NCBI GenBank assembly: GCA_018267155.1
Contig: JAFDZE010000025.1
Location: 535 to 48,465 of the forward strand
Length of the DNA stretch: 47,931 nt
Direction of reading: 5' to 3'
DNA from: Bacteroidota bacterium
GTDB taxonomy: Bacteria; Bacteroidota; Bacteroidia; Flavobacteriales_F; PHOS-HE28
Position 1 is the first letter of the stretch; the number at the start of each line of letters is the position of its first letter. This document shows, in pieces, positions 14,811-38,844 of the stretch. Under the pieces are notes generated by a model, which saw nothing but the letters and a program-made list of their open reading frames with translations, made no database searches and was not told the origin of the DNA. The position numbers and the translations under genes were made by a program.

Positions 14811-16136
14811 TCAACCTGGAACAACGCCATTGACCCCCCTGGGCCAGGCCAGGTACCATTTCTCCACCGGCCGGGCGAGCGCAGCGATACCGAGGTTGTC
14901 GCTGGCCTGGGCGATGTCGCGCACGGTGCCATCCTTGAACAGCAGTTCGATGCGGTCCTTGGCGGGATCGTACGCGTTGTTCACGATGCGACCGGTAAGC
15001 ACGAAGTGGGCCGACTCCTCCGGGGTGATCCCCAACGTGTTCGACACGTGCGTCCGCAGGGCCTGCACCTCCTCATCGGTCCAACGGGCATCGCGCAAGC
15101 GGATGTGCAGGTTGTGGCGCTGGGTGAGATCGGTGGCCAGGCGGGCCAATACCTTGTCCGGGTGATCGCACCAGACCTTCACGGCACCCATGATGTCGTG
15201 ATCGTCCAGCTTGAGGAAGTCCGTCAGCACGGCCGGGTCGTTGAAGCTCGCGCGATCGTGCCGTGTGCGCAGGAAGCGAAGCAGGGCCGGGGAGCCGAAG
15301 AGCGGCACATCGGCCAGGCCGAGGGTTTTGGCGCGTCGGAGCGTTTCCACCAGCATCATCTCGCAGGCCACCACCGTCTTGTGCAGGTACACCTGCCAGT
15401 ACATCAGGCGGCGCGCCACGATGAATTTCTCGATGCTGTAGATGGCCTTTTCCTCCACCACGAGGCGGTCGTTCACCACCTGCAGCATCTTGATGATGCG
15501 TTCACCGCCGATGACACCCTCGCTCACCCCGGTATAAAAACTGTCGCGGTTCAGGTAGTCGATACGGTCCACATCAAGCTGGCTGCTCACGAGCTGATGC
15601 AGGAAGCGCTTGGGATGCTGGTCGCGGAAGATGCGGATCCCCGTCCCCAGGGCACCGTCGAACCCGGCGTTGAGGGCATCCATCACCAGGGCACTGATGG
15701 CCTCGTGGTCCATGCCTTCCACTATGCTGTGTTCCAGTGCGTGACTGAACGGTCCGTGGCCGATGTCGTGCAGCAGGATGGCCACATGCGCGCCCAAGGC
15801 CTCCTCGTCGGTGATGCTGTGGCCCTTGGCGCGCAGGGTGGCCACGGCCTCGCTCATCAGGTGCATGGCGCCCAGCGCGTGGTGGAAGCGGGTGTGCAGC
15901 GCGCCGGGGTACACCAGGTGGCCCAGCCCCAACTGCTTGATGTAGCGGAGCCGCTGGAACCACGCATGGTCGATCAACCGCTGCACCACCGGGTGGGGCA
16001 CGGTGATGAACCCGTAGATGGGGTCGTTGAGGATCTTGCCGGGAGTGGACACGCGGATCGTCAGTCCTGGCGCGGCTTCCAGGGCTTTCGCCCAAGCGTT
16101 GGGCGCAGCGGGTGGAATCGGCCTAATTTCACGCAC
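14811..16136 (-). CDS. HD-domain phosphohydrolase (dNTP triphosphohydrolase-like)
   Basis: A 441-residue cytosolic HD-superfamily protein. The N-terminal region carries the metal ligands: RFHHALGAMHL (H near 85), AILLHDIGHGPFSH (HD pair near 121-122) and QLDVDRIDYLNRDSFYTGV (D near 190). This order is typical of dGTPase/SAMHD1-like phosphohydrolases (COG1078). The C-terminal half is mostly alpha-helical without further motifs. A nucleotide substrate is likely but unproven. The first in-frame start is GTG 16136, but homologues usually begin near the KILNDPIYGF segment, so GTG 16052 may be the real start. A TATTTTCG element lies immediately upstream of 16136, which also favours a start further in. 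It is divergent from porX. Confidence 0.9.
   Translation of the reverse strand: MREIRPIPPAAPNAWAKALEAAPGLTIRVSTPGKILNDPIYGFITVPHPVVQRLIDHAWFQRLRYIKQLGLGHLVYPGALHTRFHHALGAMHLMSEAVATLRAKGHSITDEEALGAHVAILLHDIGHGPFSHALEHSIVEGMDHEAISALVMDALNAGFDGALGTGIRIFRDQHPKRFLHQLVSSQLDVDRIDYLNRDSFYTGVSEGVIGGERIIKMLQVVNDRLVVEEKAIYSIEKFIVARRLMYWQVYLHKTVVACEMMLVETLRRAKTLGLADVPLFGSPALLRFLRTRHDRASFNDPAVLTDFLKLDDHDIMGAVKVWCDHPDKVLARLATDLTQRHNLHIRLRDARWTDEEVQALRTHVSNTLGITPEESAHFVLTGRIVNNAYDPAKDRIELLFKDGTVRDIAQASDNLGIAALARPVEKWYLAWPRGVNGVVPG
16124..16131 (+). promoter_or_regulatory. porX: Putative -7 box of porX
   Basis: TAATTTCA lies 57 bases upstream of the porX ATG, within the short divergent region shared with the HD-phosphohydrolase gene. 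It resembles the other TAnTTTCG elements in the window. It overlaps the 5' end of the HD gene if the first GTG of that gene is used. Confidence 0.35.
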
Positions 16137-16188
16137 CGAAAATAGACGGCTTTCCCGTCACGTTCCGAAGGGAAATCCGGACCAACGC

Positions 16189-17742
16189 ATGAGCACGAGC
16201 ATCCTCTGGGCCGATGACGAGATCGACCTCCTGAAACCCCACGTCCTCTTCCTGGAGCAGAAGGGCTACACCGTGAACACCGTGAACAATGGCCTGGACG
16301 CCGTGGACCTGGTGGGCAAACGCGAATTCGACATCGTGTTCCTGGACGAGAACATGCCGGGCCTCAGCGGGCTCGAAACGCTGGAGCGGATCAAGAGCAT
16401 GGCCCCGCGCACCCCGGTGATCATGATCACCAAGAGCGAGGAGGAGCGCATCATGGAGGAGGCCATCGGCAGCAAGATCAGCGACTATCTGATCAAGCCG
16501 GTGAACCCCAACCAGATCCTGCTGGCGCTGAAGAAGCACCTGGATGCCAAACGGCTGGTGAGTGAGAAGACCAACACCAGCTACCAGCAGAACTTCGGGC
16601 GGCTGAGCATGCGCTTGAGCGACCGGTTGAGCGCGGCGGATTGGATCGTGCTCTATGACGAACTGGTGCGTTGGGAATTGGAGCTGAGCGCCAACCCGGA
16701 CCAGAGCATGGCCGAGATCCTGCGGAGCCAGTGGGCCGAGGCCAACGACCTGTTCTGCCGCTTCGTGGAGAACAACTACCTCACCTGGTTGACCGGCAAC
16801 GCCAAGGATGCGCCGTTGCAATCGCACCAGTTGTTCAAGGCCAAGGTGGCCCCGCTGATCGACGAGAAGCAGGCACCGCTCTTCATGGTGCTGATCGACA
16901 ACCTTCGGCTGGACCAGTGGCGCATCATTGAACCCATTGTCAGCGAATATTTCAAGGTGGAGGAGCAGGGTGCATTCTTCAGCATACTGCCCACCGCCAC
17001 GCAGTACGCGCGCAACGCCCTCTTCGCCGGCATGATGCCCGCCGACATTGAACGGCGTTTCCCGGGCAAGTGGCTGAACGAGGATGCCGAGGGCAGCAAG
17101 AACGCGTACGAGGACGAGTTCCTGGCCGCGCAGTTGAAGGGGCTGGGCAAGAACGTGAAGCACAGCTACCATAAGATCACCAACATCGCCCAGGGCAAGA
17201 AGCTGGCCGAGAGCATGCACACGTTGATGGACAACGCCTTCAACGTGATCGTGTACAATTTCGTGGACATGCTGAGCCACGCCCGTACCGAGATGGAGAT
17301 CATCCGTGAGTTGGCCGAGGACGAGCCGGCCTACCGCTCGCTCACGCGGAGCTGGTTCGAACATTCGCCGTTGCTGGACATGCTGAAGTTCATCGCCGAC
17401 AAGGGCGGTCGCGTGGTGATCACCACCGACCATGGCACCGTGCGGGTAACGCAGCCGAGCAAGGTGGTGGGCGACCGCAACACCAACACCAACCTGCGCT
17501 ACAAGCACGGCCGCAACCTCACGTACGAGGCGCGCGAGGTCTTCGCCGTGAAAGATCCGTCCAAGGCGTTGTTGCCCAAGGCCAACATGAGCACGGCGTA
17601 CGTTTTCACCAAGCGGGACCTGTACTTCGTGTACCCGAACAATTACAACCACTTCGTGAACTTTTTCCGCAACACCTTCCAGCACGGCGGCATCTCCATG
17701 GAAGAGATGATCGTGCCGGTGGTGCGGTTGAAGGCACGATGA
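16189..17742 (+). CDS. porX: PorX-type response regulator with PglZ/alkaline-phosphatase-like output domain
   Basis: A 517-residue regulator, matching the length of Porphyromonas PorX. Residues 1-120 form a receiver domain with acidic pocket (ADDE, 8-11), phospho-acceptor D53 (FLDENMPG), T81 and K103 (LIKPVNP). A helical linker spans about 125-250. The C-terminal part (about 280-517) is a PglZ-like domain of the alkaline phosphatase superfamily, with metal-site segments LIDNLRLDQW and TTDHG (D414, H415). In Porphyromonas, PorX works with kinase PorY and sigma factor SigP and is needed for T9SS function. Here it fits with the several T9SS cargo genes in the window. No PorY is adjacent. The start at 16189 gives the canonical N terminus. 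Its stop overlaps tsaE (ATGA). Confidence 0.95.
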   Translation: MSTSILWADDEIDLLKPHVLFLEQKGYTVNTVNNGLDAVDLVGKREFDIVFLDENMPGLSGLETLERIKSMAPRTPVIMITKSEEERIMEEAIGSKISDYLIKPVNPNQILLALKKHLDAKRLVSEKTNTSYQQNFGRLSMRLSDRLSAADWIVLYDELVRWELELSANPDQSMAEILRSQWAEANDLFCRFVENNYLTWLTGNAKDAPLQSHQLFKAKVAPLIDEKQAPLFMVLIDNLRLDQWRIIEPIVSEYFKVEEQGAFFSILPTATQYARNALFAGMMPADIERRFPGKWLNEDAEGSKNAYEDEFLAAQLKGLGKNVKHSYHKITNIAQGKKLAESMHTLMDNAFNVIVYNFVDMLSHARTEMEIIRELAEDEPAYRSLTRSWFEHSPLLDMLKFIADKGGRVVITTDHGTVRVTQPSKVVGDRNTNTNLRYKHGRNLTYEAREVFAVKDPSKALLPKANMSTAYVFTKRDLYFVYPNNYNHFVNFFRNTFQHGGISMEEMIVPVVRLKAR

Positions 17743-22632: not shown

Positions 22633-23760
22633 ATGAGCAAGACGCGCTTGGGAGTGGAGCGGCATGATGCCGGGGAGCATGCCGTACTGATCGGCGAAGG
22701 AGTCCTGGTGGAGTTGGAGCGGGCGCTCGAGCAGGACCTGCGTCCTTCACGGGTATTCATCCTTGGCGATGAGAACACGCTGGACCTGTGCTACGGGGAA
22801 CTCGTCCGTCAGGTGCCCGCACTCAACGATGCGCAGACCATTGAAGTGCGCAGCGGAGAACGGAGCAAGGACATCGAGGTGTGCCGTGCGTTGTGGAGCC
22901 ACCTTGCCGAGCGCGGGGCTGATCGTGCGACCATGCTCGTCTGCCTCGGCGGTGGCGTGGTCACCGATCTCGGTGGATTCGTGGCCGGAACCTACATGCG
23001 CGGCATCCGCACGGTGCATGTGCCCACCACGCTCATGGGCATGGTGGATGCCGCCATCGGGGGTAAGACGGCGATCGACCTCATGGGGATCAAGAACCTG
23101 GTGGGCTTGTTCGCTCCACCGGCGGCCACCTATGTGTATCCGCGTTTCCTGCGCACCCTCGGCAAACGCGAGCTGCTCAACGGTGTGGCCGAGATGGTGA
23201 AGCACGGCCTGGTACGTGATGCCGACCACTGGAACGCGGTGCGCCGCGCGCCACTGCACGATCTGGACGCGCTGGCACCGCTCATCGCCCGCAGTGCCGG
23301 TATCAAGGCCGCGGTGGTACAGGAGGATCCGCGGGAGGGCGGCTCCCGCAAGCTGTTGAACTTCGGCCACACCATCGGCCATGCACTGGAAGCGTTCGCC
23401 CTGGAAGGCGCCCAACGCAGCCTCTTGCACGGTGAGGCCGTCGCCATTGGGATGGTGTGCGGGTCGTGGCTCAGCTGGCGCTTGGGCCACCTGGAACGCA
23501 CCAGGATGGACGCCATCCAGGAGCACCTCCTCGGACTGTTCCAGCCGTTCGTACTGCAGGCCACCGACCACCATCGCGTGATCGAGTTGATGCGCAGTGA
23601 CAAGAAGAACAAGGAGGGCGGATTCCGTTTCACCCTGCTCACGGACATCGGACGGGCCATCACCGATGTCCCCGTTACCGCCGCGCAGGCCGCCGATGCG
23701 CTGGACCACTACCGACTGCTCACACACGATGCCCGACCGGCTGACGATCACGCGGCCTGA
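22633..23760 (+). CDS. aroB: 3-dehydroquinate synthase
   Basis: A 375-residue NAD- and metal-dependent enzyme for the second step of the shikimate pathway (DAHP to 3-dehydroquinate). Motifs: VEVRSGERSKD-type nucleotide loop (here IEVRSGERSKD), LGGGVVTDLGGFVAGTYMRG, VPTTLMGMVDAAIGGKTAIDL, the metal-binding NGVAEMVKHG, NFGHTIGHALE and HGEAVAIGM. All zinc ligands (Glu in AEMVKHG, His in GHTIGHA and LHGEA) are in place. The 3' end overlaps the start of aroA by 32 bases, so the two are one operon. The C-terminal tail beyond residue 355 is slightly longer than usual because it runs through the overlap. Confidence 0.96.
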   Translation: MSKTRLGVERHDAGEHAVLIGEGVLVELERALEQDLRPSRVFILGDENTLDLCYGELVRQVPALNDAQTIEVRSGERSKDIEVCRALWSHLAERGADRATMLVCLGGGVVTDLGGFVAGTYMRGIRTVHVPTTLMGMVDAAIGGKTAIDLMGIKNLVGLFAPPAATYVYPRFLRTLGKRELLNGVAEMVKHGLVRDADHWNAVRRAPLHDLDALAPLIARSAGIKAAVVQEDPREGGSRKLLNFGHTIGHALEAFALEGAQRSLLHGEAVAIGMVCGSWLSWRLGHLERTRMDAIQEHLLGLFQPFVLQATDHHRVIELMRSDKKNKEGGFRFTLLTDIGRAITDVPVTAAQAADALDHYRLLTHDARPADDHAA

Positions 23761-24976
23761 ACGCCCCATCGATGCGGTGATCGACCTGCCGCGCTCGAAG
23801 AGCGTGGCCAATCGGCTGCTGATACTCGCCTCGCTCGCCGGCGATCCCGGCGCGGTAAAGGATCCCGGTTCGGCGGAGGACACGCGACTGTTGCGCAACC
23901 TGCTCCGCGACCGGCCCCGCGTGATGCACTGCGGCATGGGCGGAACGGTATTCCGGTTCCTCCTGGCCTGGGCCGCCGTGCGTGAAGGCCGTGAACATAT
24001 CATCACAGGCGATGCGCGCTTGCTGAAGAGACCGCACCAGCCGCTGGTGGACGCGTTGCGCCTGCTCGGTGCCGACATCGGGGCCGTGGACAATGGTTAC
24101 CGTGTTCGCGGTAGACGGCTCGCCGGCGGGACCATCGTGATGGACGCCCCGCTGAGCAGCCAGTTCATCAGTGCGCTCCTGTTGATCGCCCCGCTGATGG
24201 AGAACGGACTGTACCTCCGTTGGACCGGAACGCGGCTGAGTGAGCCGTACGTGCTGATGACCATGCTCGCCATGGAACACTTCGATGTGCCGCCGCTGGT
24301 GGACCATGATGGGATCCGGGTGCGCGCACGGCCGCTGCGTGCCAAGCCCTGCCTTGTGCCACCGGATTGGAGCGCAGCCTCGTTCTGGTTCGAGGTGGTG
24401 GCCTTGGCCGGGAACGCGCGGATCCTGCTGCGCGACCTGCACCGGGACCGCTGGCAGGGCGATGAAGCGGCCTGTCGGCTCTGGAAACCCTGGGTGCGTG
24501 CCGACAGCACGGATCAAGGGGTACTGCTCACCTGCGAACGCTCGCCCGGCTTCGGCGACGGTCACCAGGAACTGCGTTTCAACCTGCGCGACCATCCGGA
24601 CCTCTTCCAACCACTGGCCCTCACTTGCGCCGGGCTCGGACAAGCGGCCCGCTTCACCGGGCTGGAGAACCTGCATGTGAAGGAGACGGACCGCATCGCC
24701 GCGGTCATCGACAGCCTTGTTGAACTCGGCATACGGCCCGAACTTCCGGAGAACGGATTTTCGCTCCCATTCGTCCGGGATCCCCTTGGTTCGGTACCGC
24801 ATCCGGACCGTGCGTTCAACACCTTCGGCGATCACCGCATGGCGATGTCGCTGGCTCCCCTGGCCCTCCGCACCGGTAGGATCACCCTGCGCGATCCGGG
24901 CGTGGTGGCGAAGAGTTATCCGGGGTTCTGGGAGGGTCTGCGGAAGGCGGGATTCCACGTGGGTACCGGCGTGTGA
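23729..24976 (+). CDS. aroA: 3-phosphoshikimate 1-carboxyvinyltransferase (EPSP synthase)
   Basis: A 415-residue EPSP synthase that transfers enolpyruvate from PEP to shikimate-3-phosphate. Key segments: LPRSKSVANRLLILASL (Lys of the canonical KS motif), GMGGTVFRFL (replacing the canonical NAGTAMR loop), GDARLLKRPHQPLVDALRLLG, PLSSQFISALLLIAPLM, ENLHVKETDRIAAVIDSLVELG and FGDHRMAMSLAPLAL. The short form and the GTVFRFL loop are typical of Bacteroidota AroA as I recall them. The start at 23729 lies inside aroB (32-base overlap), which supports coupled translation. Enzyme activity is likely because the Lys, Glu and Arg catalytic positions are conserved. Confidence 0.95.
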   Translation: MPDRLTITRPERPIDAVIDLPRSKSVANRLLILASLAGDPGAVKDPGSAEDTRLLRNLLRDRPRVMHCGMGGTVFRFLLAWAAVREGREHIITGDARLLKRPHQPLVDALRLLGADIGAVDNGYRVRGRRLAGGTIVMDAPLSSQFISALLLIAPLMENGLYLRWTGTRLSEPYVLMTMLAMEHFDVPPLVDHDGIRVRARPLRAKPCLVPPDWSAASFWFEVVALAGNARILLRDLHRDRWQGDEAACRLWKPWVRADSTDQGVLLTCERSPGFGDGHQELRFNLRDHPDLFQPLALTCAGLGQAARFTGLENLHVKETDRIAAVIDSLVELGIRPELPENGFSLPFVRDPLGSVPHPDRAFNTFGDHRMAMSLAPLALRTGRITLRDPGVVAKSYPGFWEGLRKAGFHVGTGV

Positions 24977-25039: not shown

Positions 25040-28000
25040 ATGCGCCTTTCTCTCCGGTCCGTGATCGGCCTGCACGCAGCCTTCTGTGGTGTGGCCCGGA
25101 TCCTCGCGCAACCCGCTTTCACCGTCGATACGCTCGATCTGGCCTTTTCCAAGATCACCATCAACGAGGGGCTCTCACAGGGCATGGTCAGCACCATCGC
25201 GCAGGACCGCCAGGGCTTCATGTGGTTCGGCACCAAGGACGGCCTGAACCGCTACGACGGCTACACCTTTACCGTGTTCCGGCACGATGCGGCCGACAGC
25301 AACACTGTGCGCGAGAGCACCATCACCGGCCTGTACTGCGACCGCATGGGACGGCTCTGGGTGGGCACCGCCACCGGGCTCGACCTCTTCGATGACCGTA
25401 CCGAGCGCTTTGTCCACGTACCCATTGAGGGCTCCAACGGCGACTGGGGCAGTGTGGTCCACATCGTGCTCGACGACAACGGCGATCTCTGGGTGAGTAC
25501 CACCTCCACATTGGTGAAGCTCACGTTCGCTGAGCCCTTCACCTCGCACGTCCTGCCCTCGTTCACCACAACGTGGTTCGGCGATGGCTATGCCACCATC
25601 AGCCACACACGCGATGGTACGCTCTGGGGCAACGTCAACGAGGTCACGTTCCGGATCACCCCTCATCATGGTGTACCGGACGGGATCGACACCATCGGCA
25701 CCATCGACTTCTGCAATGCCAGGGAACAGTTCGGTGCGCTCACGGTGGTGGAGGATACCGTGCGCGACAAATTGTACGGCATCTATGAGAACGGTATCGT
25801 TGAAGTGGACCGGGCCAGCGGCCGACTCGAGTATCTGATCCAGGACAGCAACACCCTGAACTGGCTGCAGGCGCTCAATCCGGTGATCGACAGGAAGGGC
25901 ATGATGTGGTTGGCGACGTTCCGTGGACTCTACCGATTTGATCCCGTCCGACGCCAACTCACGTCCATCGGCACATCCGATCCGGACCTCGGACCGTTGA
26001 TCAGCACGTTGAAGTGGTCAATGTTCGACCGCACGGGCACGCTCTGGTTGGGCACCGCCGGCTACGGCGTACTCAAGTACGATCCCCGGATCGAACGCTT
26101 CAACAACCAGGCGAGCGGAAGTGTACGCGCTCTGGCCATGACGAATGATGGCCAGGTACTCATCTCGCACTACAACAGTTACCTGACGGTCTTCGATCCC
26201 GGACCCGGGCGGTACAGCACGCGGATCAAACGCGTTGATCAGCGCTGGCCCGCGATCGGTGCGGAACTTCCGACGCAGTATGCGGAGATGACCGTGCAGG
26301 ATCGCGACGGCGTGTACTGGTCCTACCTTACGTACGGTATCCTCGGCCGGTATGACCCGAAGGCGGGCACATTCGAGCTGGTGAGACCGGCGCGTGAACC
26401 TGGCGAACCGGAGGATGGTTTCCTCTTCCCGTTGCACATCGGTACGGACAGCGCGCTGTGGTGCGGAGGCAACCAAGGCCTCTGGCGGATCGACACGCGC
26501 AGGAAGGCATGCGTGGTGCATCCCTGGCCCACAGCAGCGGTGAACAATCCGTACCCCTTCACCACAGCGATCCATCAAGGTTCGGACGGTGTGGTCTGGG
26601 TGGGCACGGTGAAGGGCCTGCTCCGTTTCGATCCCCATGCGGACACATGGCGGATCCGGGCGCACGATCCCGACGATCCCACCACACTATCCGCCCAAAC
26701 GGTCTTCGCCGTGTGCCCGGATCCAGCGGACCCGCTGAACGTCTTCTGGGTCGGCACGAACGGCGGTGGCTTGGACCGCTTTGACGCTCGCACCGGGAAG
26801 TTCTCGCGCTTCACCACGCACGAGGGCTTGCCCAACGATGTTGTGTACGGCGTGCTCAGCGATGACGCAGGCTGTCTGTGGATGAGCACGAACAAGGGGA
26901 TCGCACGCTTGGATCCACGGACCGGGGTCTTCCGCAATTTCAATGCGGGGGATGGTCTTCAGAGCGACGAATTCAACCGCTACTCCTATTGCAAGGACAA
27001 GCAGGGGCGGCTGTGGTTCGGAGGGGTCAGTGGATTCAACTGGTTCGATCCGCGTGAGCTGGCGGAGGACCCCGCCCCCCTCACCGTGCGCATCACCGGC
27101 ATCAAGCTGATGAACAAGCCGGTCATCTTCGGCTCCCCGGGCGCCCCGCTCGGATCGCCCGCTCACCTGAGCACCGGCATGACCATCCCGTACAGCGCGA
27201 GCATGGTGACGTTCACGTTCGCGGCCATGGAATTCAGTGCGCCGGAACTCCATCAGTACAGGTATAAATTGGAGGGGTTCGACCCGGACTGGATCGACGC
27301 GGGTACGGACCACAGCGCCATTTACACCAACCTGGACCCGGGTACCTACGTCTTCAGGGTGCGTGCCAGCAATCGCGACGGGATCTGGGATGAACAAGGG
27401 ACCTCCTTCTTTCTCACCGTTCGCCCGCCCTGGTGGCGGACCTGGTGGTTCTACACACTTTGCGGCCTGGTCACGATCGGCGGGGTGCTGCTGTACATAC
27501 GCAGCCTGCGCGTGCGCCAGGTGATGCTGGAGCGCACGGTGGACCAGCGCACGCACGAGTTGAAGCGCGAGATGGACCGGAGCGAGGAACTGTTGAAGAA
27601 CATCCTGCCGGTGAATGTGGCCGCAGAACTCAAACTCCGGGGACATGCCGAGGCGCGGCATTTCGACCAGGTCACCGTGCTGTTCAGCGACTTCAAGGAT
27701 TTCACGCATGTGAGCGAACAACTCTCCGCCACTGAACTGGTGGAGGAGCTGAACGTCTGCTTCAACGCCTTCGATCGGATCATGGAAAAATACGGAGTGG
27801 AGAAGATCAAGACCATCGGCGACGCGTACATGGCGGCCGGCGGCGTGCCCGATCCGAGCGGGGGCATGCCCCTTGGCGTGGTGCTCGCCGGCCTGGAGAT
27901 GCAAGAGATCATGCGGGAGCGGCAGCTTGAACGGATGGCCGCGGGCAAGCCCACGTTTGAGATGCGCGTGGGCATTCATACCGGTCCGGTGGTCGCCGGC

Positions 28001-28717
28001 ATCGTTGGTCGGCGCAAGTTCGCATACGACATCTGGGGCGATACCGTGAATACGGCCAGCCGGATGGAAAGCAGCGGAGCAACAGGTGAGGTGAACATCA
28101 GTGAAGCCACCTACCAACTGGTGAAGGATGAGCCGGATCTGCTGTTCACACCACGTGGGAGAGTGGCCGCGAAGGGCAAGGGTGACCTGGAGATGTTCTA
28201 CGTCCGTGCTCGTTCCATCAGATCGATCGTTGATGCAGAACCCTCCAGGCGGGATCCCATGGTGGTCGGCCCCCGCTTGCGCAAGGAGGAGGGATCCGGG
28301 TCCATGGAGGAACGGACAAGCCTGCTCCGCAACGTGCGGATACTGCTTGCGGAGGACAATGATTTCAACGCGATGGTGGCGCAGGGCCATCTTGAGCACG
28401 CCATCCCCGGTATGAGGCTCGTTCACGTCCTGAATGGGGTGAAAGCGGTGGAGGCCGTCCGAGCGGGCGATTTTGATGTCGTTTTGATGGATGTCCAGAT
28501 GCCGGAGATGAACGGGTATGATGCCACCCGGGCCATACGTGCCCTGCCCGGTGACAAGTCGCGAGTCCCGATCATCGCGATGAGCGCCAATGTGATGAAG
28601 GCGGAGATCGATCGTTGCTTGGAGGCGGGGATGAGCAAATTCGTCCCCAAGCCGTACAAACAGGAGCAGCTGCTGTCGGCGATCGAGAGTGTACTGAACG
28701 GAAAGGATGTGCGCTGA
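25040..28717 (+). CDS. Propeller/Y_Y_Y sensor adenylate cyclase with C-terminal receiver domain
   Basis: A 1225-residue transmembrane signalling protein. Order: signal peptide (1-24), a two-component-regulator beta-propeller of Reg_prop repeats (about 30-680; GLSQGMVSTIAQDRQGFMWF, DRMGRLWVGTATGLDLFD), a Y_Y_Y domain (about 730-797), one membrane helix (about 797-822), a short coiled coil, a class III cyclase domain (about 875-1058) and a receiver domain (about 1097-1222). Cyclase residues are intact: metal Asp in LFSDFKDF and IGDAYM, substrate Lys in EKIKTIGD, Asp in YDIWGDTVN, and Asn/Arg in NTASRMES. The Lys/Asp pair predicts ATP, not GTP. The receiver has D1151 (VVLMDVQMPEMNG) and the conserved Lys (FVPKPYKQ). 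It should make cAMP in the cytoplasm under control of a periplasmic ligand and of phosphorylation (inference). Its stop overlaps the next gene, a histidine kinase without receiver. Confidence 0.9.
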   Translation: MRLSLRSVIGLHAAFCGVARILAQPAFTVDTLDLAFSKITINEGLSQGMVSTIAQDRQGFMWFGTKDGLNRYDGYTFTVFRHDAADSNTVRESTITGLYCDRMGRLWVGTATGLDLFDDRTERFVHVPIEGSNGDWGSVVHIVLDDNGDLWVSTTSTLVKLTFAEPFTSHVLPSFTTTWFGDGYATISHTRDGTLWGNVNEVTFRITPHHGVPDGIDTIGTIDFCNAREQFGALTVVEDTVRDKLYGIYENGIVEVDRASGRLEYLIQDSNTLNWLQALNPVIDRKGMMWLATFRGLYRFDPVRRQLTSIGTSDPDLGPLISTLKWSMFDRTGTLWLGTAGYGVLKYDPRIERFNNQASGSVRALAMTNDGQVLISHYNSYLTVFDPGPGRYSTRIKRVDQRWPAIGAELPTQYAEMTVQDRDGVYWSYLTYGILGRYDPKAGTFELVRPAREPGEPEDGFLFPLHIGTDSALWCGGNQGLWRIDTRRKACVVHPWPTAAVNNPYPFTTAIHQGSDGVVWVGTVKGLLRFDPHADTWRIRAHDPDDPTTLSAQTVFAVCPDPADPLNVFWVGTNGGGLDRFDARTGKFSRFTTHEGLPNDVVYGVLSDDAGCLWMSTNKGIARLDPRTGVFRNFNAGDGLQSDEFNRYSYCKDKQGRLWFGGVSGFNWFDPRELAEDPAPLTVRITGIKLMNKPVIFGSPGAPLGSPAHLSTGMTIPYSASMVTFTFAAMEFSAPELHQYRYKLEGFDPDWIDAGTDHSAIYTNLDPGTYVFRVRASNRDGIWDEQGTSFFLTVRPPWWRTWWFYTLCGLVTIGGVLLYIRSLRVRQVMLERTVDQRTHELKREMDRSEELLKNILPVNVAAELKLRGHAEARHFDQVTVLFSDFKDFTHVSEQLSATELVEELNVCFNAFDRIMEKYGVEKIKTIGDAYMAAGGVPDPSGGMPLGVVLAGLEMQEIMRERQLERMAAGKPTFEMRVGIHTGPVVAGIVGRRKFAYDIWGDTVNTASRMESSGATGEVNISEATYQLVKDEPDLLFTPRGRVAAKGKGDLEMFYVRARSIRSIVDAEPSRRDPMVVGPRLRKEEGSGSMEERTSLLRNVRILLAEDNDFNAMVAQGHLEHAIPGMRLVHVLNGVKAVEAVRAGDFDVVLMDVQMPEMNGYDATRAIRALPGDKSRVPIIAMSANVMKAEIDRCLEAGMSKFVPKPYKQEQLLSAIESVLNGKDVR

Positions 28718-31700
28718 TGCGGGCCGGTAAACCGATCGTCATGGCCTGTCTCGTCGTGTCCGCGGGCTGCGAACGAGAAATACATCATGAACGGTCGGTA
28801 GAGACGAGGATGCCGGTGGCCGCCGTGGGCCGCGTCACGCGGATCGATGCGGCGAACGCCCCGGAGGTGCTGCCCGTGCCACCGGAGCGTACGGTGACGG
28901 CCGGACCGTTCATTCCCGTTGGGAACGATGGCGCGGTCGCGGGTGCCATCGCACACACGCGAACGTTCACCACCGACGATGGCCTGCCCATGGACGACAT
29001 CATGTGCGCGTACCGCGCTCCCGATGGGGCGCTATGGTTCGGTACCAACGGCGGTGGCATCACACGTTACGATGGCCATTCATTCACCAACTACTCCATG
29101 GCCCACGGCCTGCCGGACAACACCATCCTATCCCTCCGGGGCGACCGGCAAGGCAACCTCTGGATCGGAACGAGCACGGGTGGACTTTGCCGCTTCGACG
29201 GGCATCGTTTCACCACGTTCACGATCGGTGAAGGAACGGGTCTGGCCAAGGGCATCAACTGCATCCTGGAGGATCAGCAGGGCGTGTTATGGTTCGGGTC
29301 CCGTGGCCACGGCGTGTTCCGGTACGACGGCAAGGACTTCACGATCATGCCGGTGATCGATCCCGAGGGCAGGGATCTCCTGCTGGACATGGTCCTCGCG
29401 AATGACGGCTCCGTCTGGGCGTCGACCGATCACGGGCTCGCGCGGTACGATGGCCGTATGTTCAGACATATGATCCCGATGAATGGAGATTCGCTGGATG
29501 ATGTGATCTCCATGGTGGCCAACGCCGATGGATCCCTGTGGCTCGGGAGGGAGAACGGAGGCATCACGCGTTGTGCGATCGACCATGGTCGCATGATGAC
29601 CACCGATATCCAACTCCTGCCCGGCGAACCTGTTCGTGTCGGTCAAATGATCAACGGCCGAGGAGGCACACTCTGGATCGGGACCACGACGCACGGTGCG
29701 CTGTTGTTCAACCCACGGGAGCAGGGTCCTTCACGGGTGCGCCGATTGTCCACCGCGCAGGGTTTGCCATCGGACGAGGTATTGTGCGTGGTGATGGGCA
29801 GGCACGGCGATGTCTGGCTCGGATCACGGGGTGCCGGGCTCACCCACTACCACGGTGAAGCCCTGTCCACCTTCCGTGGCATCAGACCGATCAGCATGGC
29901 CGAGGACCCGCAAGGCATATTGTGGCTGGGCACGACGGGGGGACTGGCGCGTTTTGATGGGCAAGGCTTCAGTGAACAACGCACCGGGTCCGGTACACCG
30001 GGGTGGGTCTACTCGGTAAGTATCGATCCCCTGGGACGTGCAGGTTTCGGCAGGAACATGATCGACCCCCGTGTGAACGGGATCAGCTGGTTCGATGGTG
30101 CGCGTTACCACGTGACGAGCGTACCCGATGACCGGAAATTCCCCGACATCTTCTGGACGCTTCATGACCACCACGGTCACCTTTGGGTCGGGGGGCGACG
30201 GGGCGTGGAACGTTATGCCGATGGCCAGCGCACCAGTTACACCACGGGTCAGGGACTCGGGAGCGACCTGATCCTCTCACTCGCCGAGGACGGGCACGGA
30301 TCCATTTGGGCAGGTACGGACGGCGGGGGCGTTTCGCGCATCGACAGCACGCGGGTGACCACCTGGACCACGGAACAAGGGTTGCCCAACAACGTGGTTT
30401 GGACCGTTCTGGACGAAGGTCGCGGGACGATGTGGATGACCACCTTGGCAGGACTCTGCCGCTTCGATGGCCGGACTTTTCTCACGTTCGGTACGCAGCA
30501 GGGCCTGCCCGACGACATTGTCAATCAGGCGCTGCTCGCCAGGGACCGCAAGGCGTTGTATGTGGGCACGCTCAATGGCCTCGCGGTGATCACCGGCTGG
30601 AGGGATCGCGCCGGGCACATACGACCCTGCGATGCGTTCACCGGCCTGTCGAACGATTCCCTCGCTGCGTACGAACCGGTCGTTGAGGTCTACAACGCGT
30701 CCACCGGCTTCCCGGTAAAGGACATCCAGACCGCGGAGCATTCAATTTTTGAGGACAGCAAAGGGATCGTGTGGGTCGCCACGGGGAGCGACAAGACCGG
30801 ACTCGTGCGACTGGATCGTGCGGCACTCCAGCCTGATACGGTCCCGTTGACCGTACAGCTGATGGAGGTGACACTCGGGAACGAGCGCGTTTGTTGGTAC
30901 GACCTCCTGGCAGGATGCGACAGTACTACGCTCGCACAGCAGGAGAAATGCACCTTCGGAAGGAGCATGACGAAGGATGAGCGTGAAGCGGTACGAACAA
31001 GGCTCTCCGGCGTGACTTTCAATGCGATCAGCCCGTTCTTCGCCGTACCGCGATCGCTCGTGCTCGACCACGCGAACGATCGCATCGCGTTCAGGTTTTC
31101 GGGTATCGAGACCTCGCGCCCCGAGGTGGTGCTGTACCAGTACATGCTGGAAGGTTATGATGAGGACTGGAGCGCCCCGGCTCGAACGAGCCGTGCCACA
31201 TACGGGAACATCAACGAAGGCGAATACGTCTTCAAGGTAAAAGCGAAGAACACGGCCGGGATCTGGAGCGCACCTTTGGAGTACCGCTTCAGCGTGCTGC
31301 CGCCATGGCATCGTACATGGTGGGCATATGCGCTGTACGTGCTGGCTGTTGGCGGAGGCACCGTGCTGTACATCCGGCTTCGACTCGCGGCATTGAAACG
31401 CCAGAAGGCGGTGCTGGAGCGTACCGTGGATGAGCGCACCGTGGAATTGCGGCACAAGAAGGAGGAAGCGGACCAGCAGCGGCAGCGGGCCGAGTTGAGC
31501 GAAAAGGCCAAGGAGCAGTTCCTCGCCAACATGAGCCATGAGATCCGTACACCCATGAACGCCATCATGGGCATGAGCGACATCCTGAAGAACCGACCGC
31601 ACCCGCCGGAACAGGACAAGTTCCTCCATGCCATCACCCAGAGCAGCGAGAACCTGCTCGTCATCATCAACGACATCCTCGACCTGACCAAGATCGACGC

Positions 31701-32199
31701 CGGGCGTTTCGAATTCGAGGCTATACCGTTCGAGCCGCGCACCGTGCTCGGGAATGTGGGGGACATCCTGCAGTTCAAGGCTGAAGGGAAGGGACTCGCG
31801 CTCGCACTGGAGGTCGATGATGCGGTCCCTGAGAAGCTGATCGGTGATCCGACCCGATTGAACCAGATCGTGATGAACCTTGCCGGCAACGCCGTGAAAT
31901 TCACGGAGCGGGGAGGTGTGACCATCCGTGCCTCCATCGCGGAGCGGTCCATCGATCGCTGTTCGCTCGTTGTCGCGGTCAGCGACACGGGCATCGGCAT
32001 TCCGGAGGACCGGCTGGAAAAGATATTCGAGGAGTTCACGCAGGCATACAGCGACACCACACGGAAGTATGGTGGTACCGGCTTGGGGCTCACCATCAGC
32101 AAACGGCTCGCTGAATTGCAGGGAGGAAGCATATCAGTGACCAGCCAGCGCGACAAAGGCAGCACGTTCACGGTGGCGATCCCCTATGGCCTGGGGTGA
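28717..32199 (+). CDS. Propeller/Y_Y_Y sensor histidine kinase without receiver domain
   Basis: A 1160-residue membrane kinase whose ATG overlaps the previous stop (TGATG), implying coupled translation. An N-terminal export signal (IVMACLVVSAGC) has only a weak lipobox around Cys18. A Reg_prop beta-propeller follows (about 75-720; DGLPMDDIMCAYRAPDGALW, QGLPNNVVWTVLDEGRGTMW), then a Y_Y_Y domain (about 790-863), one membrane helix (about 865-890), a coiled coil, HisKA with H941 (NMSHEIRTPMN), and HATPase_c with N-box NLAGNAVKF (about 1052), DTGIGIPEDR (about 1089) and GGTGLGLTISKRL. The chain ends right after the ATPase domain, so no receiver, HPt or AraC output is fused. Bacteroidota hybrid sensors of this type usually carry their receiver and regulator in cis. 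The nearest receiver is on the adjacent cyclase, its probable partner. Confidence 0.9.
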   Translation: MRAGKPIVMACLVVSAGCEREIHHERSVETRMPVAAVGRVTRIDAANAPEVLPVPPERTVTAGPFIPVGNDGAVAGAIAHTRTFTTDDGLPMDDIMCAYRAPDGALWFGTNGGGITRYDGHSFTNYSMAHGLPDNTILSLRGDRQGNLWIGTSTGGLCRFDGHRFTTFTIGEGTGLAKGINCILEDQQGVLWFGSRGHGVFRYDGKDFTIMPVIDPEGRDLLLDMVLANDGSVWASTDHGLARYDGRMFRHMIPMNGDSLDDVISMVANADGSLWLGRENGGITRCAIDHGRMMTTDIQLLPGEPVRVGQMINGRGGTLWIGTTTHGALLFNPREQGPSRVRRLSTAQGLPSDEVLCVVMGRHGDVWLGSRGAGLTHYHGEALSTFRGIRPISMAEDPQGILWLGTTGGLARFDGQGFSEQRTGSGTPGWVYSVSIDPLGRAGFGRNMIDPRVNGISWFDGARYHVTSVPDDRKFPDIFWTLHDHHGHLWVGGRRGVERYADGQRTSYTTGQGLGSDLILSLAEDGHGSIWAGTDGGGVSRIDSTRVTTWTTEQGLPNNVVWTVLDEGRGTMWMTTLAGLCRFDGRTFLTFGTQQGLPDDIVNQALLARDRKALYVGTLNGLAVITGWRDRAGHIRPCDAFTGLSNDSLAAYEPVVEVYNASTGFPVKDIQTAEHSIFEDSKGIVWVATGSDKTGLVRLDRAALQPDTVPLTVQLMEVTLGNERVCWYDLLAGCDSTTLAQQEKCTFGRSMTKDEREAVRTRLSGVTFNAISPFFAVPRSLVLDHANDRIAFRFSGIETSRPEVVLYQYMLEGYDEDWSAPARTSRATYGNINEGEYVFKVKAKNTAGIWSAPLEYRFSVLPPWHRTWWAYALYVLAVGGGTVLYIRLRLAALKRQKAVLERTVDERTVELRHKKEEADQQRQRAELSEKAKEQFLANMSHEIRTPMNAIMGMSDILKNRPHPPEQDKFLHAITQSSENLLVIINDILDLTKIDAGRFEFEAIPFEPRTVLGNVGDILQFKAEGKGLALALEVDDAVPEKLIGDPTRLNQIVMNLAGNAVKFTERGGVTIRASIAERSIDRCSLVVAVSDTGIGIPEDRLEKIFEEFTQAYSDTTRKYGGTGLGLTISKRLAELQGGSISVTSQRDKGSTFTVAIPYGLG

Positions 32200-32276
32200 T
32201 ACCGTGCGCCAGGACCACATTCAACCCGATGGTTACTGAGACGGCCAGAAAGAACCGGTCGGTCCCGGGTTCAAGG

Positions 32277-32316
32277 GTGCGAGGGTGCAAGAGTCACGAC
32301 TCTCGCACCCTCGCAC
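32277..32316. repeat. 19-bp inverted repeat (REP-like or terminator)
   Basis: Arms 32277-32295 and 32298-32316 pair with one mismatch around a 2-nt loop, forming a long GC-rich hairpin 78 bases after the kinase stop. Within each arm GTGCGAGG-like units recur, and a third partial unit follows (TTTCGCACCC). A terminator role is possible, but the internal repetition looks more like a REP-type element. The rest of the 280-base gap (32200-32479) shows no gene. Confidence 0.6.
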
Positions 32317-32479
32317 TTTCGCACCCCATGGTTCATTCTGATCACGATAGTCGAGAGATCGGATCTTCATCACCGGCTCAGTATTACTGTTCGGAACATC
32401 CGATCGTGGATGGATCCTTTGGTCGCCGCATATACGGCTTCGGGGATGGGCGTAGTTTTCTCACCACAAGAACAACCAC

Positions 32480-35835: not shown

Positions 35836-38481
35836 CTATCGGACCCGGATGCGTTGCCTCAGGTCCATCAGCTCCGTATTCGCGGTGCGCCCGCGTTCAT
35901 CGGCGCTGAATTCGGGACGCAGCCGGTCGATGAACCAGCTCTCCACCTCACCCTTGCCCTTGATGTTCACCTTGCCGCGCGCCTCGCTGATCACGTAGGC
36001 CTCCACGTGCCGCATCACGTTGCCGGTCACGTTCACACGGCCGGGCGCGCCGTTGCTTTCCATGCGGCTGGCCAGGTTCACCGTGTCGCCCCACACGTCG
36101 TAGGCGAATTTCTTCTCGCCCACCACCCCGGCGATCAGCGGGCCGCTGTTCAGCCCGATGCGGATGGGCCAGGCCGGATCGCCCTCGCAGATGCGCTGCG
36201 CATTGATGCTGTCCACCACGCTGAGCATCTCCAGGGCCATGAGCACCGCATCCAGGGCGTGTGTGGGGCTGGGCTCGGGAACGCCACTGGCGCACATGTA
36301 CGCATCGCCGATGGTCTTGATCTTCTCGGTGCCGTACTTGTCCGTGATGCGGTCGAAGGCCCGGAAGAAGCGGTCCAGTTCGGTAACGATACCGGTGTCC
36401 TCGTATTGCTCGCTCAGCACGGTGAAGCCTTGGAAGTCGCTGAAGAGCACGGTGCAATCCGAATAGCTCCGCGCCTGTGCCGAGCCGTGCTTCTTCAGTT
36501 CCGCGGCCGTGGTCTCGGGCAGGATGTTCAACAGCAAGGTGTCGCTGCGGTGCTTTTCCTCGGTCAGTTCCTGCGTGCGCGTGGCCACGATGCGTTCCAG
36601 CCGTTCGCGTGCCTTGCGCTGTCGGCGATCGCGCAGGCGCTGCACCCCGATGAAGCCGAGCAGCAGCACGGCCGCACCCGTTGCGCGGAAGGGCGTGGTG
36701 GCCCAGAACGGCGGTGTGATCACGAAGGCGAAGCGCGCCGGCTCGTCGTTCCAGACCCCGCTGCCGTTGCGCGCTTTTACCAGGAAGGTGTATTCACCCG
36801 GCTCCAGTCCACTGAAGGTGACCTGGTCCTCACGGATGATCGGCGACCAGTCCGCATCGCGGCCGTCCAGCTTGTATTGGAATCGGACTTTCTCGGGGTA
36901 GGCGAGCGACAGGCCGCTGAAGGAGAAGGTGAGGTGGTTCTTCGCGTGGGGCAGCCGCAGCGCGATCGGAAGCCCATCACGACCGATGGAATCGCACCAG
37001 GGCGCCCAGTCCGGGTGCTCGAAGAAGAGCGTAAGGTCGATGATGCGGGTGCGCGGGGGCACGGGATCCATGAGCACCTTGCGCGGGTCGAAGCGGATGG
37101 TACCTCGCGTGGTACCGAACCACAGGGAGCTGTCCGCATCGAGCATGCACGCGTTCGGCATGGCCTCGATCCCCGGGAAGCTTTCTGCGGTCCCGTAGGA
37201 CGTGATATCGATGACCTGCTCCTGCAGCTCGTCCAGCTCGAACAGGTGGAAACCACGGTCCGTACCCACCCAGAGGTTCTGGTACGCATCGAGCAGGAGC
37301 TGGCGGATGCGGTCACTGGCCAGGCCGCTCTCCTTGGTCCAGCGTTGTGTGGTGCCGTTCCGGTAGCGCACCACGCCGGCATCCGCAGTGCCGATCCAGA
37401 CATTGTCCGCACGGTCCACGGCGAGGCAGGTGATGTCCTCCTTGCCGGCATGGAAGATCGGCGTCCAGTTGGCGGCGCTGTTGTCCAAGGGGGCTGCGTA
37501 CAGCCCCTGATGGGTGCCGATCAGGATCGAGTCGCCGTGGAACGCCAGGGCACACGCAGCAAGGGTATCCTGCCCCACGTGCAACCACTCGCTGGTCGGG
37601 GCGATCGTGATCAGCCCTTTTCCGGTGGCGGCCCAGGAGCTGCCACGGACATCGGTGAGCGCGGCGAAGACCGGGGCTTCTTGGTAGATGAAGGGCCCGA
37701 TGGAGGGGTTCTCGTGCGGGGATCCGAAACCTTCCAAGTGGAAGATCCCTTCATCGTTCCCGGCATAGAGTTGCTTTTTTCCCGGGCCCATGATCGCTCG
37801 AATGGTGCCGCCGGGCCACAGGCCCTCCAATGACCCTGTGATGCCCGCCGGGAGGTGCGCGTAAGCGATGCCGTTCTCGCCGGCCATGATGCGCAGGTCG
37901 CCTGCAGCGGAGCGATACATGGACATGACCTTCGCATAGGAACCGCCCTCCCGGCCGAATTGGAGCACAGCGTCGCTGATGTACCGGTTCAGGCCCCCTT
38001 GACGGGTGCCGATCCACATCACACCGCTGCTGTCTTCGAAAAGACAGGTGATGTCGTTGCTGCCCAGTCCATTTCCCCAGTAGAGTTTGAACAGCGGTTC
38101 CGGGGCCTTCCGCTGAGGAAAGACCTGTACGCCGGTTTCGGTCCCCTGCCAGTACCGGTTCGTTCGTGGCGATACCAATGTGCAGGTGGTACGGAGTCCA
38201 TCGTCGACACCGGGTATTGCGGTTGGCGGCATGGCAAGCGGTGTGGGGATCGGGAAACTCGAGCCCAATGGCACGTCCCTGAAATTCCGGCCATCGAATC
38301 GGCAGTCCCCGCCATCGGTCCGCACCCACAGGAACCCGGTGCTGTCCTGCGCGATGGCTGTTACCGTGCTGCCGGGCAGGCCGTCCTCCACCCCGAACAC
38401 ACGGATGTCGTATTGCTGCGCCATGGCTCGCAGGACGAGCAGACACAGGCATGGCAGGGCGATCGTGCGGAGGAAGAGCAT
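35836..38481 (-). CDS. Propeller/Y_Y_Y sensor adenylate cyclase (no receiver)
   Basis: An 881-residue transmembrane cyclase related in plan to the protein at 25040 but without its receiver. A signal peptide (1-22, LVLRAMAQQ) precedes a beta-propeller with Reg_prop repeats (about 25-500; GLPGSTVTAIAQDSTGFLWV, DSSGVMWIGTRQGGLNRY), a Y_Y_Y domain (about 517-580), a membrane helix (about 597-617), a basic coiled coil (RERLERIVATRTQELTEEKH), and a class III cyclase domain (about 672-860). The catalytic set is intact: LFSDFQGF, EKIKTIGDAYM, YDVWGDTVN and NLASRMES, with the Lys/Asp pair predicting ATP as substrate. The start at 38481 was chosen for its signal peptide; the open frame upstream is not protein-like. 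It would convert a periplasmic signal directly into cAMP. It is divergent from a small HTH gene. Confidence 0.9.
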   Translation of the reverse strand: MLFLRTIALPCLCLLVLRAMAQQYDIRVFGVEDGLPGSTVTAIAQDSTGFLWVRTDGGDCRFDGRNFRDVPLGSSFPIPTPLAMPPTAIPGVDDGLRTTCTLVSPRTNRYWQGTETGVQVFPQRKAPEPLFKLYWGNGLGSNDITCLFEDSSGVMWIGTRQGGLNRYISDAVLQFGREGGSYAKVMSMYRSAAGDLRIMAGENGIAYAHLPAGITGSLEGLWPGGTIRAIMGPGKKQLYAGNDEGIFHLEGFGSPHENPSIGPFIYQEAPVFAALTDVRGSSWAATGKGLITIAPTSEWLHVGQDTLAACALAFHGDSILIGTHQGLYAAPLDNSAANWTPIFHAGKEDITCLAVDRADNVWIGTADAGVVRYRNGTTQRWTKESGLASDRIRQLLLDAYQNLWVGTDRGFHLFELDELQEQVIDITSYGTAESFPGIEAMPNACMLDADSSLWFGTTRGTIRFDPRKVLMDPVPPRTRIIDLTLFFEHPDWAPWCDSIGRDGLPIALRLPHAKNHLTFSFSGLSLAYPEKVRFQYKLDGRDADWSPIIREDQVTFSGLEPGEYTFLVKARNGSGVWNDEPARFAFVITPPFWATTPFRATGAAVLLLGFIGVQRLRDRRQRKARERLERIVATRTQELTEEKHRSDTLLLNILPETTAAELKKHGSAQARSYSDCTVLFSDFQGFTVLSEQYEDTGIVTELDRFFRAFDRITDKYGTEKIKTIGDAYMCASGVPEPSPTHALDAVLMALEMLSVVDSINAQRICEGDPAWPIRIGLNSGPLIAGVVGEKKFAYDVWGDTVNLASRMESNGAPGRVNVTGNVMRHVEAYVISEARGKVNIKGKGEVESWFIDRLRPEFSADERGRTANTELMDLRQRIRVR

Positions 38482-38558
38482 GCAGGGTGATCGTGATCGA
38501 CGGCCGCACGAACTTCTCCTTTTTTTCCACCGGGCGAACCGATCAACAGGATAAGCAT

Positions 38559-38566
38559 TAACTTCG
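38559..38566 (+). promoter_or_regulatory. Putative -7 box of the small HTH gene
   Basis: TAACTTCG lies 23 bases before the ATG at 38590 in the 108-base divergent region shared with the cyclase gene. It is a looser match to the TAnTTTCG elements found elsewhere in the window. Confidence 0.35.
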
Positions 38567-38589
38567 GGCGTCTCCAAAACCAAGCGGCC

Positions 38590-38844
38590 ATGAACATCAC
38601 TTTCAACGAGCTCCGGAACATCAAGGACAGCCTGCCCGATGGCAGCATCCACCGCATTGCGCGGGAACTGGACCTGAACGTGGAAACGGTCTGGAACTAC
38701 TTCGGTGGGTACTCACATCCGGGCGGTAGGCCCATGGGTGTGCATTTGGAAGGCGGTGCGAATGGTGGCGTGGTTGCGTTGGACGACACACGGATCCTGG
38801 ACATGGCGCGCCGGATCCTGGATGAGGTTCCGCATCACGCGTAG
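38590..38844 (+). CDS. Small helix-turn-helix DNA-binding protein
   Basis: An 84-residue protein. Residues 5-40 form a clear helix-turn-helix (LRNIKDSLPDGSIHRIAREL then DLNVETVWNYFGG), of a type that recurs as a short stand-alone DNA-binding protein in Bacteroidota (by memory). The second half holds a glycine-rich loop (YSHPGGRPMGVHLEGGANGG) and a terminal helix (DTRILDMARRILDEV) that could mediate dimerisation. It is divergent from the receiver-less cyclase gene, so it may regulate that gene or itself. No cAMP-binding domain is present. The target is unknown. Confidence 0.8.
   Translation: MNITFNELRNIKDSLPDGSIHRIARELDLNVETVWNYFGGYSHPGGRPMGVHLEGGANGGVVALDDTRILDMARRILDEVPHHA

What the first reader, a model, noticed from the sequence alone, without database searches (positions are those of the whole stretch)
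25040..32199. Adenylate cyclase with a receiver domain, translationally coupled to a receiver-less histidine kinase of the same sensor family
Both proteins have a periplasmic Reg_prop propeller, a Y_Y_Y domain and one membrane helix. The first ends in an intact class III adenylate cyclase plus a receiver (D1151); the second ends in HisKA/HATPase with no receiver. Their ORFs overlap (TGATG). Bacteroidota hybrid sensors normally fuse kinase, receiver and AraC regulator in one chain. Here the chain is split and the output is replaced by cAMP synthesis, so the pair could form a membrane hetero-complex in which phosphorylation tunes cyclase activity. I know of no described system with this exact layout. 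The domain reading is seen; the partnership is inferred.
Basis: partly seen in the sequence, partly recalled or inferred. Interest (0 to 1): 0.78.

Follow-up and report, generated by a model that had tools for sequence, protein, structure and literature searches.

The report
Receiver-bearing sensor cyclase with partner kinase
Two overlapping bacterial genes encode a membrane sensor that should make the messenger cAMP and carries a phosphorylation switch, and a membrane kinase that most likely sets that switch; the pairing recurs in relatives, while the similar cyclases without the switch that were checked lack such a neighbour.

Summary
ORF 25040-28717 (1225 aa) is propeller / Y_Y_Y / TM / class III cyclase / receiver. 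ORF 28717-32199 (1160 aa) is propeller / Y_Y_Y / TM / HisKA / HATPase without receiver. They overlap as TGATG. The inferred partnership is now well supported. Cyclase-receiver genes were seen in 11 of 45 same-genus genomes (list cut). In all 11 a kinase gene lies beside them (G033 and G014 inferred across contig breaks; G039's kinase is interrupted). Of 104 receiver-less cyclases inspected, none has a same-strand HisKA kinase within 300 nt (74 have 3.5 kb on both sides). Eight loci have a propeller kinase downstream, three another kinase-receiver type upstream, so linkage outlives kinase swaps. Receiver phospho-site residues are intact in 30 of 30 homologues. Best reading: a dual-input receptor cyclase, tuned by its own propeller and by phosphotransfer (H941 to D1151). 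Nothing is shown biochemically; the sign is unknown. In G040 an upstream cyclase has reciprocal catalytic losses, suggesting an obligate heterodimer. Receiver-controlled cyclases are known (CyaC, Dictyostelium ACB); the C-terminal receiver, propeller sensors and coupled separate kinase make a new variant.

The parts
25040..28717 (+). Cyclase-receiver gene (1225 aa): N-terminal hydrophobic segment (signal-peptide-like), Reg_prop propeller, Y_Y_Y, TM, coiled-coil linker, class III adenylate cyclase, C-terminal receiver
25169..27200 (+). Periplasmic Reg_prop propeller region of the cyclase (approximate extent; best single repeat is residues 44-66)
   Evidence: extent judged from the alignment
27233..27421 (+). 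Y_Y_Y domain of the cyclase, residues 732-794
27443..27499 (+). Predicted membrane helix of the cyclase, residues 802-820
   Evidence: hydropathy only
27653..28204 (+). Guanylate_cyc domain, residues 872-1055; D884, K924, D928, D997, N1004, R1008 present
28340..28687 (+). Receiver domain, residues 1101-1216; phospho-acceptor D1151 = bases 28490-28492
28715..28719 (+). TGATG stop/start overlap of the two genes
28717..32199 (+). Partner histidine-kinase gene (1160 aa): lipobox, Reg_prop propeller, Y_Y_Y, TM, HisKA, HATPase_c, no receiver
28759..28770 (+). Lipobox SAGC, Cys18, of the kinase (predicted lipid anchor)
   Evidence: own regex and hydropathy, no SignalP
31117..31275 (+). Y_Y_Y domain of the kinase
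31339..31395 (+). Predicted membrane helix of the kinase, most hydrophobic 19 residues 875-893
   Evidence: hydropathy only
31507..31704 (+). HisKA domain; H941 of HEIRTP = bases 31537-31539
31843..32187 (+). HATPase_c domain of the kinase

Best explanation
A two-gene receptor system that feeds two periplasmic signals into one cAMP output. The cyclase-receiver protein works as a homodimer: its propeller/Y_Y_Y sensor acts through the membrane helix and coiled coil on the cyclase pair, as presumably in its receiver-less relatives. The separate kinase reads a second signal with its own propeller, autophosphorylates H941, and passes the phosphate in trans to D1151 of the receiver behind the cyclase, which raises or lowers cyclase activity. 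The overlap keeps the two proteins in step. Shown by sequence: domains, intact active-site residues, conserved linkage and coupling. Inferred: phosphotransfer, that ATP is the substrate, dual input, and any effect on activity. The sign is not known.
For: (1) In all 11 genomes where the cyclase-receiver was seen a kinase gene lies beside it, with a 4- or 1-base stop/start overlap in 10 of 11 (G040 has a gap; G033 and G014 inferred across contig breaks; in G039 the adjacent piece is the kinase's sensor and its kinase domain lies about 3.9 kb on). (2) Control: 0 of 104 receiver-less cyclases from own and same-genus genomes has a same-strand HisKA-type kinase within 300 nt (64, 40; 42 of the 104 are propeller-type; 74 have at least 3.5 kb on both sides). 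(3) The partner-kinase sensor occurs in 8 of 45 genus genomes at E 1e-60, all 8 among the 11 (hypergeometric 7.7e-7, not corrected for relatedness). (4) Kinase type and gene order differ (8 downstream propeller kinases, 3 upstream kinases of another type) while linkage persists. (5) Receiver E, D, D, S/T, K present in 30 of 30 homologues. (6) The partner kinase's own receiver is present or absent in a scattered way on the kinase tree. (7) Only one Hpt match, below the cut-off, in the 82%-complete assembly, which favours direct transfer. (8) Precedent in print: AphC purportedly phosphorylates and activates CyaC (PMC4284465, passage); [quoted passage not shown]
Against: No biochemical data. At five of the 11 loci (G036, G012, G014, G020, G040) the kinase has its own receiver, so phosphate could go there first. 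In 5 of 30 homologues the cyclase has lost catalytic residues (P0132, P0134, P0135 two each; P0009 and P0042 one each), so the receiver can persist on an altered cyclase. On the cyclase tree the receiver-bearing group encloses four receiver-less proteins, so the receiver is not always kept. In signalling-helix proteins the receiver lies upstream of the catalytic domain (PMC1592074, passage); how a C-terminal receiver would move the cyclase is not evident. The structure model was poor (mean pLDDT 63) and gave no docking. The 11 genomes are one genus and the propeller controls are mostly two ortholog groups, so counts are not independent.
Confidence: 0.7

Rival explanations
1. The receiver is phosphorylated by a different kinase (for example a hybrid kinase through an Hpt protein), and the neighbouring kinase serves another response regulator; the two are merely co-regulated sensors.
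For: 39 receiver matches and 12 HisKA matches in the assembly, which is 82% complete; a weak Hpt match beside the C161 receiver genes; the two propellers are only 25% identical.
Against: Kinase linkage in 11 of 11 against 0 of 104, kept through a change of kinase family and gene order.
Confidence: 0.12
2. Physical hetero-complex: kinase and cyclase sensors pair through propeller, membrane helix and the shared coiled coil, so that kinase conformation, not phosphate, sets cyclase activity.
For: The sensors align over nearly their whole length and both run into a LERTVDxRTxEL coiled coil; in G040 two adjacent propeller cyclases have reciprocal active-site losses, which suggests mixed assembly between products of neighbouring genes.
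Against: A phosphate-independent link does not explain why the receiver pocket is intact in 30 of 30, nor why kinases with an unrelated TPR sensor stand in at G036 and G014 and, by kinship, G012.
Confidence: 0.1
3. The receiver is a relic or a dimerisation module of a former hybrid sensor and has no regulatory role; co-transcription is historical.
For: The receiver lies among or near hybrid-kinase receivers in the tree; the NCBIfam best matches are TorS, ArcB and BarA receivers; some relatives inside the group lack it.
Against: Acidic pair, Asp, Ser/Thr and Lys kept in 30 of 30; coupling kept in 10 of 11; receiver-less propeller cyclases exist in 41 of 45 genomes of the genus, so loss would be easy.
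Confidence: 0.08

Closest known systems
Cyanobacterial CyaC (phosphorelay adenylate cyclase; trans input from the phytochrome-like kinase AphC)
   Same: Adenylate cyclase purportedly phosphorylated and activated by a separate histidine kinase, AphC (PMC4284465, passage).
   Different: CyaC carries its own kinase and has the receiver before the cyclase (recalled; only the title of Kasahara and Ohmori 1999 was seen, in a reference list). Here the receiver is behind the cyclase, the sensor is periplasmic, and the kinase is a separate adjacent gene.
Dictyostelium ACB/ACR (adenylyl cyclase with response-regulator domain), input from DhkB
   Same: Cyclase with a receiver whose activation is suggested to need a histidine kinase in trans without the RdeA relay protein (PMC11988041, passages).
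   Different: Eukaryote; ACB also has a kinase-like domain without the transmitter histidine. No propeller sensor and no operon (recalled).
Bacteroidota hybrid two-component systems (HTCS)
   Same: Same sensor type: Reg_prop propellers plus Y_Y_Y (PMC3243724, passages); the best solved match to the sensor part of the kinase chain is 4a2l.
   Different: HTCS are described as holding the whole phosphorelay in one chain and are often PUL-associated. Here kinase and receiver are on two chains and the output is a cyclase; no regulator domain was matched in either chain, and no SusC/SusD family was matched among the 33 window ORFs scanned.
Receiver-less propeller adenylate cyclases of the same genus
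   Same: Same sensor-cyclase layout, e.g. window 35836-38652.
   Different: No receiver, and no same-strand kinase within 300 nt in 42 of 42 inspected; the receiver-less propeller cyclase of G040 that shares the locus with the pair was not in that set.

Membership tests
Class III adenylate cyclase | Two metal Asp, ATP-selecting Lys/Asp, transition-state Asn/Arg | tested here: met
   D884, D928, K924, D997, N1004, R1008 (roles recalled); Pfam 181 bits; best solved chains are adenylate cyclases
Class III adenylate cyclase | Makes cAMP from ATP | not testable with these tools
   needs an enzyme assay
Response-regulator receiver (phospho-accepting) | Acidic pair, phospho-Asp, Ser/Thr, Lys | tested here: met
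   E1105, D1106, D1151, S1182, K1204; pattern kept in 30 of 30
Two-component pair (kinase and cognate response regulator) | Conserved gene linkage of kinase and receiver protein | tested here: met
   11 of 11 (two inferred across contig breaks, one kinase interrupted) against 0 of 104
Two-component pair (kinase and cognate response regulator) | Specific phosphotransfer from kinase to receiver | not testable with these tools
   needs a phosphotransfer assay
Hybrid two-component system (HTCS) | Kinase, receiver and regulator in one chain | tested here: not met
   receiver and kinase on two chains, no regulator domain matched
Hybrid two-component system (HTCS) | Large propeller plus Y_Y_Y periplasmic sensor | tested here: met
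   periplasmic location inferred from hydropathy
CyaC-type cyclase | Kinase domain in the cyclase chain and receiver upstream of the cyclase (layout recalled) | tested here: not met
   no HisKA in the cyclase chain; the receiver is downstream (1101-1216 after 872-1055)

The most novel reading that the evidence does not exclude
In this genus, propeller sensors encoded side by side assemble into mixed membrane complexes: heterodimeric, mammalian-like C1/C2 receptor cyclases in some lineages, and a receiver-tagged cyclase served by a lipid-anchored kinase in others. cAMP synthesis would then be a logic gate over two or three distinct periplasmic signals, one of them delivered as phosphate to a receiver placed behind the catalytic domain.
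Probability: 0.3. Interest if true: 0.75.

Novelty: new variant of a known kind. Interest (0 to 1): 0.57.

Why it matters
If true, it is a clean bacterial case of a histidine kinase controlling a second-messenger cyclase through a separate receiver, with both signals read by the large propeller sensors that in gut Bacteroidota control polysaccharide use. It gives a compact, operon-encoded pair (two genes, one phospho-site each) for testing how a C-terminal receiver tunes a class III cyclase, and natural receiver-less relatives to compare with. The G040 variant would be a natural two-gene heterodimeric cyclase, relevant to how pseudo-heterodimeric cyclases arise.

Tried and rejected
Exceptions to linkage were looked for. 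G033 seemed to have a second, unlinked kinase on C66; that contig end overlaps the cyclase contig over 385 nt at 97.9% identity, so I read it as the same gene. G014 seemed to lack a kinase; its TPR kinase is directly upstream of the 5' half of the gene on another contig, assuming both halves are one gene. G039 is poor evidence: its cyclase is split over two ORFs and its kinase is in two pieces about 3.9 kb apart; counted as linked because the sensor piece adjoins. G030 has a TPR hybrid kinase followed by a propeller ORF cut off by the contig end and no receiver-reaching match among the rows listed: left open, not counted. G012's kinase is cut before its sensor (450 aa), so its TPR type is inferred from kinship with G036's.

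AlphaFold2 of the cyclase-receiver C-terminus from 9 sequences was too poor to use; no fold search was run on it, and the second structure job was not used. Kinase-receiver co-folding was not possible with the tool (single chains). The receiver tree has few columns and long branches; the cyclase receivers do not form one clean group in it. On the cyclase tree the receiver-bearing group encloses four receiver-less proteins, so receiver loss or gain also happened on the cyclase side. The kinase tree (SH-aLRT only) mixes receiver-less and receiver-bearing kinases, so the direction of those changes is not decided. Promoter and terminator scans found no more than shuffles.

Of the 104, 74 have at least 3.5 kb on both sides and 7 have under 300 nt on one side, so a kinase could be hidden for some. 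Kinases unlike HisKA could be missed by the single kinase query. Within 6 kb, 4 of the 64 have some kinase at the threshold and 6 at the laxer one. The receiver-less cyclases that share the loci of G005, G036, G039 and G040 with the pair were not in the control.
Full report
1. What is there. The two genes are as described. The first (25040-28717) encodes 1225 residues: propeller repeats, Y_Y_Y, one membrane helix, Guanylate_cyc (872-1055) and a C-terminal receiver (1101-1216). The second starts at the ATG at 28717 inside the stop of the first and encodes 1160 residues: propeller, Y_Y_Y, one membrane helix, HisKA and HATPase_c, with no receiver. All residues that I know (recalled) to be needed for class III catalysis and for receiver phosphorylation are present. 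The phospho-site candidates are D1151 and H941. The two sensors align over nearly their whole length but are only 25% identical, and both lead into the same type of coiled coil, so this is not a recent tandem duplication.

2. Setting. The window lies in a 3.33-Mb, 164-contig assembly, 82% complete. That assembly has 14 class III cyclase matches, 39 receiver matches and 12 HisKA matches, three cNMP-binding matches and one sub-threshold Hpt match. Where an organism name was given for a cyclase-receiver protein or contig it is a Flavobacteriales MAG; many carry no name, and the placement of the window there is my inference. Upstream lie aroB- and aroA-type genes (3-dehydroquinate synthase 22633-23760; EPSP synthase, ORF 23597-24976), downstream a Por-secretion-tail protein and formate-tetrahydrofolate ligase. 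No SusC/SusD family was matched among the 33 ORFs scanned; other window ORFs were not scanned.

3. Distribution. A search of 197 relatives with the cyclase-receiver part listed the architecture in 11 genomes, all among the 45 of the same genus (two of them, G039 and G014, only in part); the other listed matches cover the cyclase only, and weaker rows were not listed. In an even sample of 395 genomes of the class, no genome outside the genus gave a match reaching the receiver at E 1e-84; more divergent ones could be missed. each list the best 120 of over 7600 hits; among the 222 proteins so returned, 32 have cyclase plus receiver: 30 are propeller/Y_Y_Y/cyclase/receiver, and 2 (P0118, P0210) are large kinase-receiver-cyclase chains. 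One search added one more, truncated (P0230).

4. Test of partnership. Reading around the 11 genes: a receiver-less propeller kinase follows in G000, G005, G035, in G039 (interrupted, in two pieces) and, by contig overlap, in G033; a kinase with receiver follows in G020 and G040; a kinase followed by a detached receiver ORF in G028; kinase-receiver genes precede it in G036 (two, TPR-type), G012 (cut by the contig start before its sensor) and, across a contig break, G014 (TPR-type by its match to G036's). Stop/start overlap is seen in 10 of 11; G040 has a gap. Conversely, the kinase sensor occurs in 8 of 45 genomes at E 1e-60, all of them among the 11. Controls: 64 receiver-less cyclases gave 0 with a same-strand kinase within 300 nt (4 with any kinase within 6 kb at the threshold, 6 at the laxer one); 40 receiver-less propeller cyclases gave 0 with any kinase in the stretch read. 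Of the 104, 74 have at least 3.5 kb on both sides. In this genus the kinase neighbour therefore goes with the receiver and not with the cyclase or the sensor. The Fisher value (1.4e-15) ignores relatedness and my choice of regions.

5. Evolutionary detail. The linkage survives a change of kinase family and a reversal of gene order. On the kinase tree kinases with and without their own receiver are mixed, so that receiver has come or gone more than once on that tree, while the receiver on the cyclase has an intact pocket in 30 of 30. It is not always kept: four receiver-less proteins fall inside the receiver-bearing group of the cyclase tree. The cyclase receivers sit among or near receivers of hybrid kinases, many of them from Flavobacteriales, so the module most likely came from a hybrid kinase. 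The detached receiver of G028 pairs with the kinase receiver of G020, so it is probably that kinase's own.

6. A lead on hetero-assembly. In G040 the cyclase-receiver has lost the transition-state Asn and Arg (also in P0134 and P0135) but keeps both metal Asp; the propeller cyclase directly upstream, overlapping it, has lost the first metal Asp (to Gln) but keeps Asn and Arg. These reciprocal losses are what a C1/C2 heterodimer would show. This is one locus; the neighbours of P0134 and P0135 could not be read. Other homologues show one-sided losses (P0009, P0042; P0223, P0190, P0226, P0194), so drift is an alternative.

7. Mechanism. I favour direct phosphotransfer H941 to D1151 and modulation of the cyclase homodimer, with the cyclase's own propeller as the other input (0.7). 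The scarcity of Hpt argues against a relay. The sign of the effect, the signals and the cAMP receptor are unknown. In print, receivers connected through signalling helices lie upstream of the catalytic domain (PMC1592074, passage); the order here is reversed.

8. Known or new. Ten literature searches listed no paper that I recognised as describing this layout; only titles and abstract openings were seen, except for passages read in PMC4284465, PMC1183210, PMC9239204, PMC1592074, PMC11988041 and PMC3243724. The library is open-access only. Control of a cyclase by a receiver is known (CyaC with AphC; Dictyostelium ACB with DhkB). The pieces are known; the arrangement (C-terminal receiver, propeller sensors on both chains, kinase as a coupled neighbour, interchangeable kinase type) is a new variant.

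Noticed in passing
window 28717-28770 and partner kinases in G035, G005, G039, G033, G020, G028, G040: All 8 propeller partner kinases have a lipobox-like Cys at the end of the N-terminal hydrophobic stretch (own regex), against 1 of 30 cyclase-receivers and 6 of 33 other propeller hybrid kinases (5 of those 6 match the partner sensor better than the cyclase sensor). A kinase anchored by a lipid and a membrane helix would be unusual ('unusual' is recalled).
   Followed up: partly
L047:3-1853 and L047:1850-5518 (G040): Two overlapping propeller cyclases with reciprocal loss of catalytic residues: a candidate obligate bacterial C1/C2-type heterodimer.
   Followed up: partly
P0121, P0124, P0133, P0136, P0137: Each of these proteins carries two class III cyclase domains in one chain; P0121 (1829 aa) has TPR and propeller families as well.
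   Followed up: partly
window 35836-38652 (-): A second propeller/Y_Y_Y adenylate cyclase without receiver, with intact catalytic residues; one search finds relatives of it in most of the genus, in at least two groups (window type and C117 type).
   Followed up: partly
G000 C96:1-4669 (L052); L041:3-5326 (G005): Tandem arrays of three cyclase genes, at least some TPR-type; the own assembly has 14 cyclase matches.
   Followed up: no
window 16018-17742: Receiver plus PglZ domain protein, PorX-like by domain content (name recalled), followed by TsaE.
   Followed up: no
G000 C161:17417-22088: Propeller hybrid kinase with receiver next to a further receiver gene and a weak Hpt match: a possible separate relay.
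   Followed up: no
L046:5575-9463 (G039): About 3.9 kb separate the two pieces of the kinase; insertion or assembly fault.
   Followed up: no
window about 32267-32326: Long G+C-rich inverted repeat in the gap after the kinase gene, seen by eye in the sequence printed; a 14-base piece of it occurs once in the window.
   Followed up: partly
L152 (G030 C29): TPR hybrid kinase followed by a propeller ORF cut by the contig end; possibly a twelfth locus (TPR type by its match to G036's kinase).
   Followed up: no
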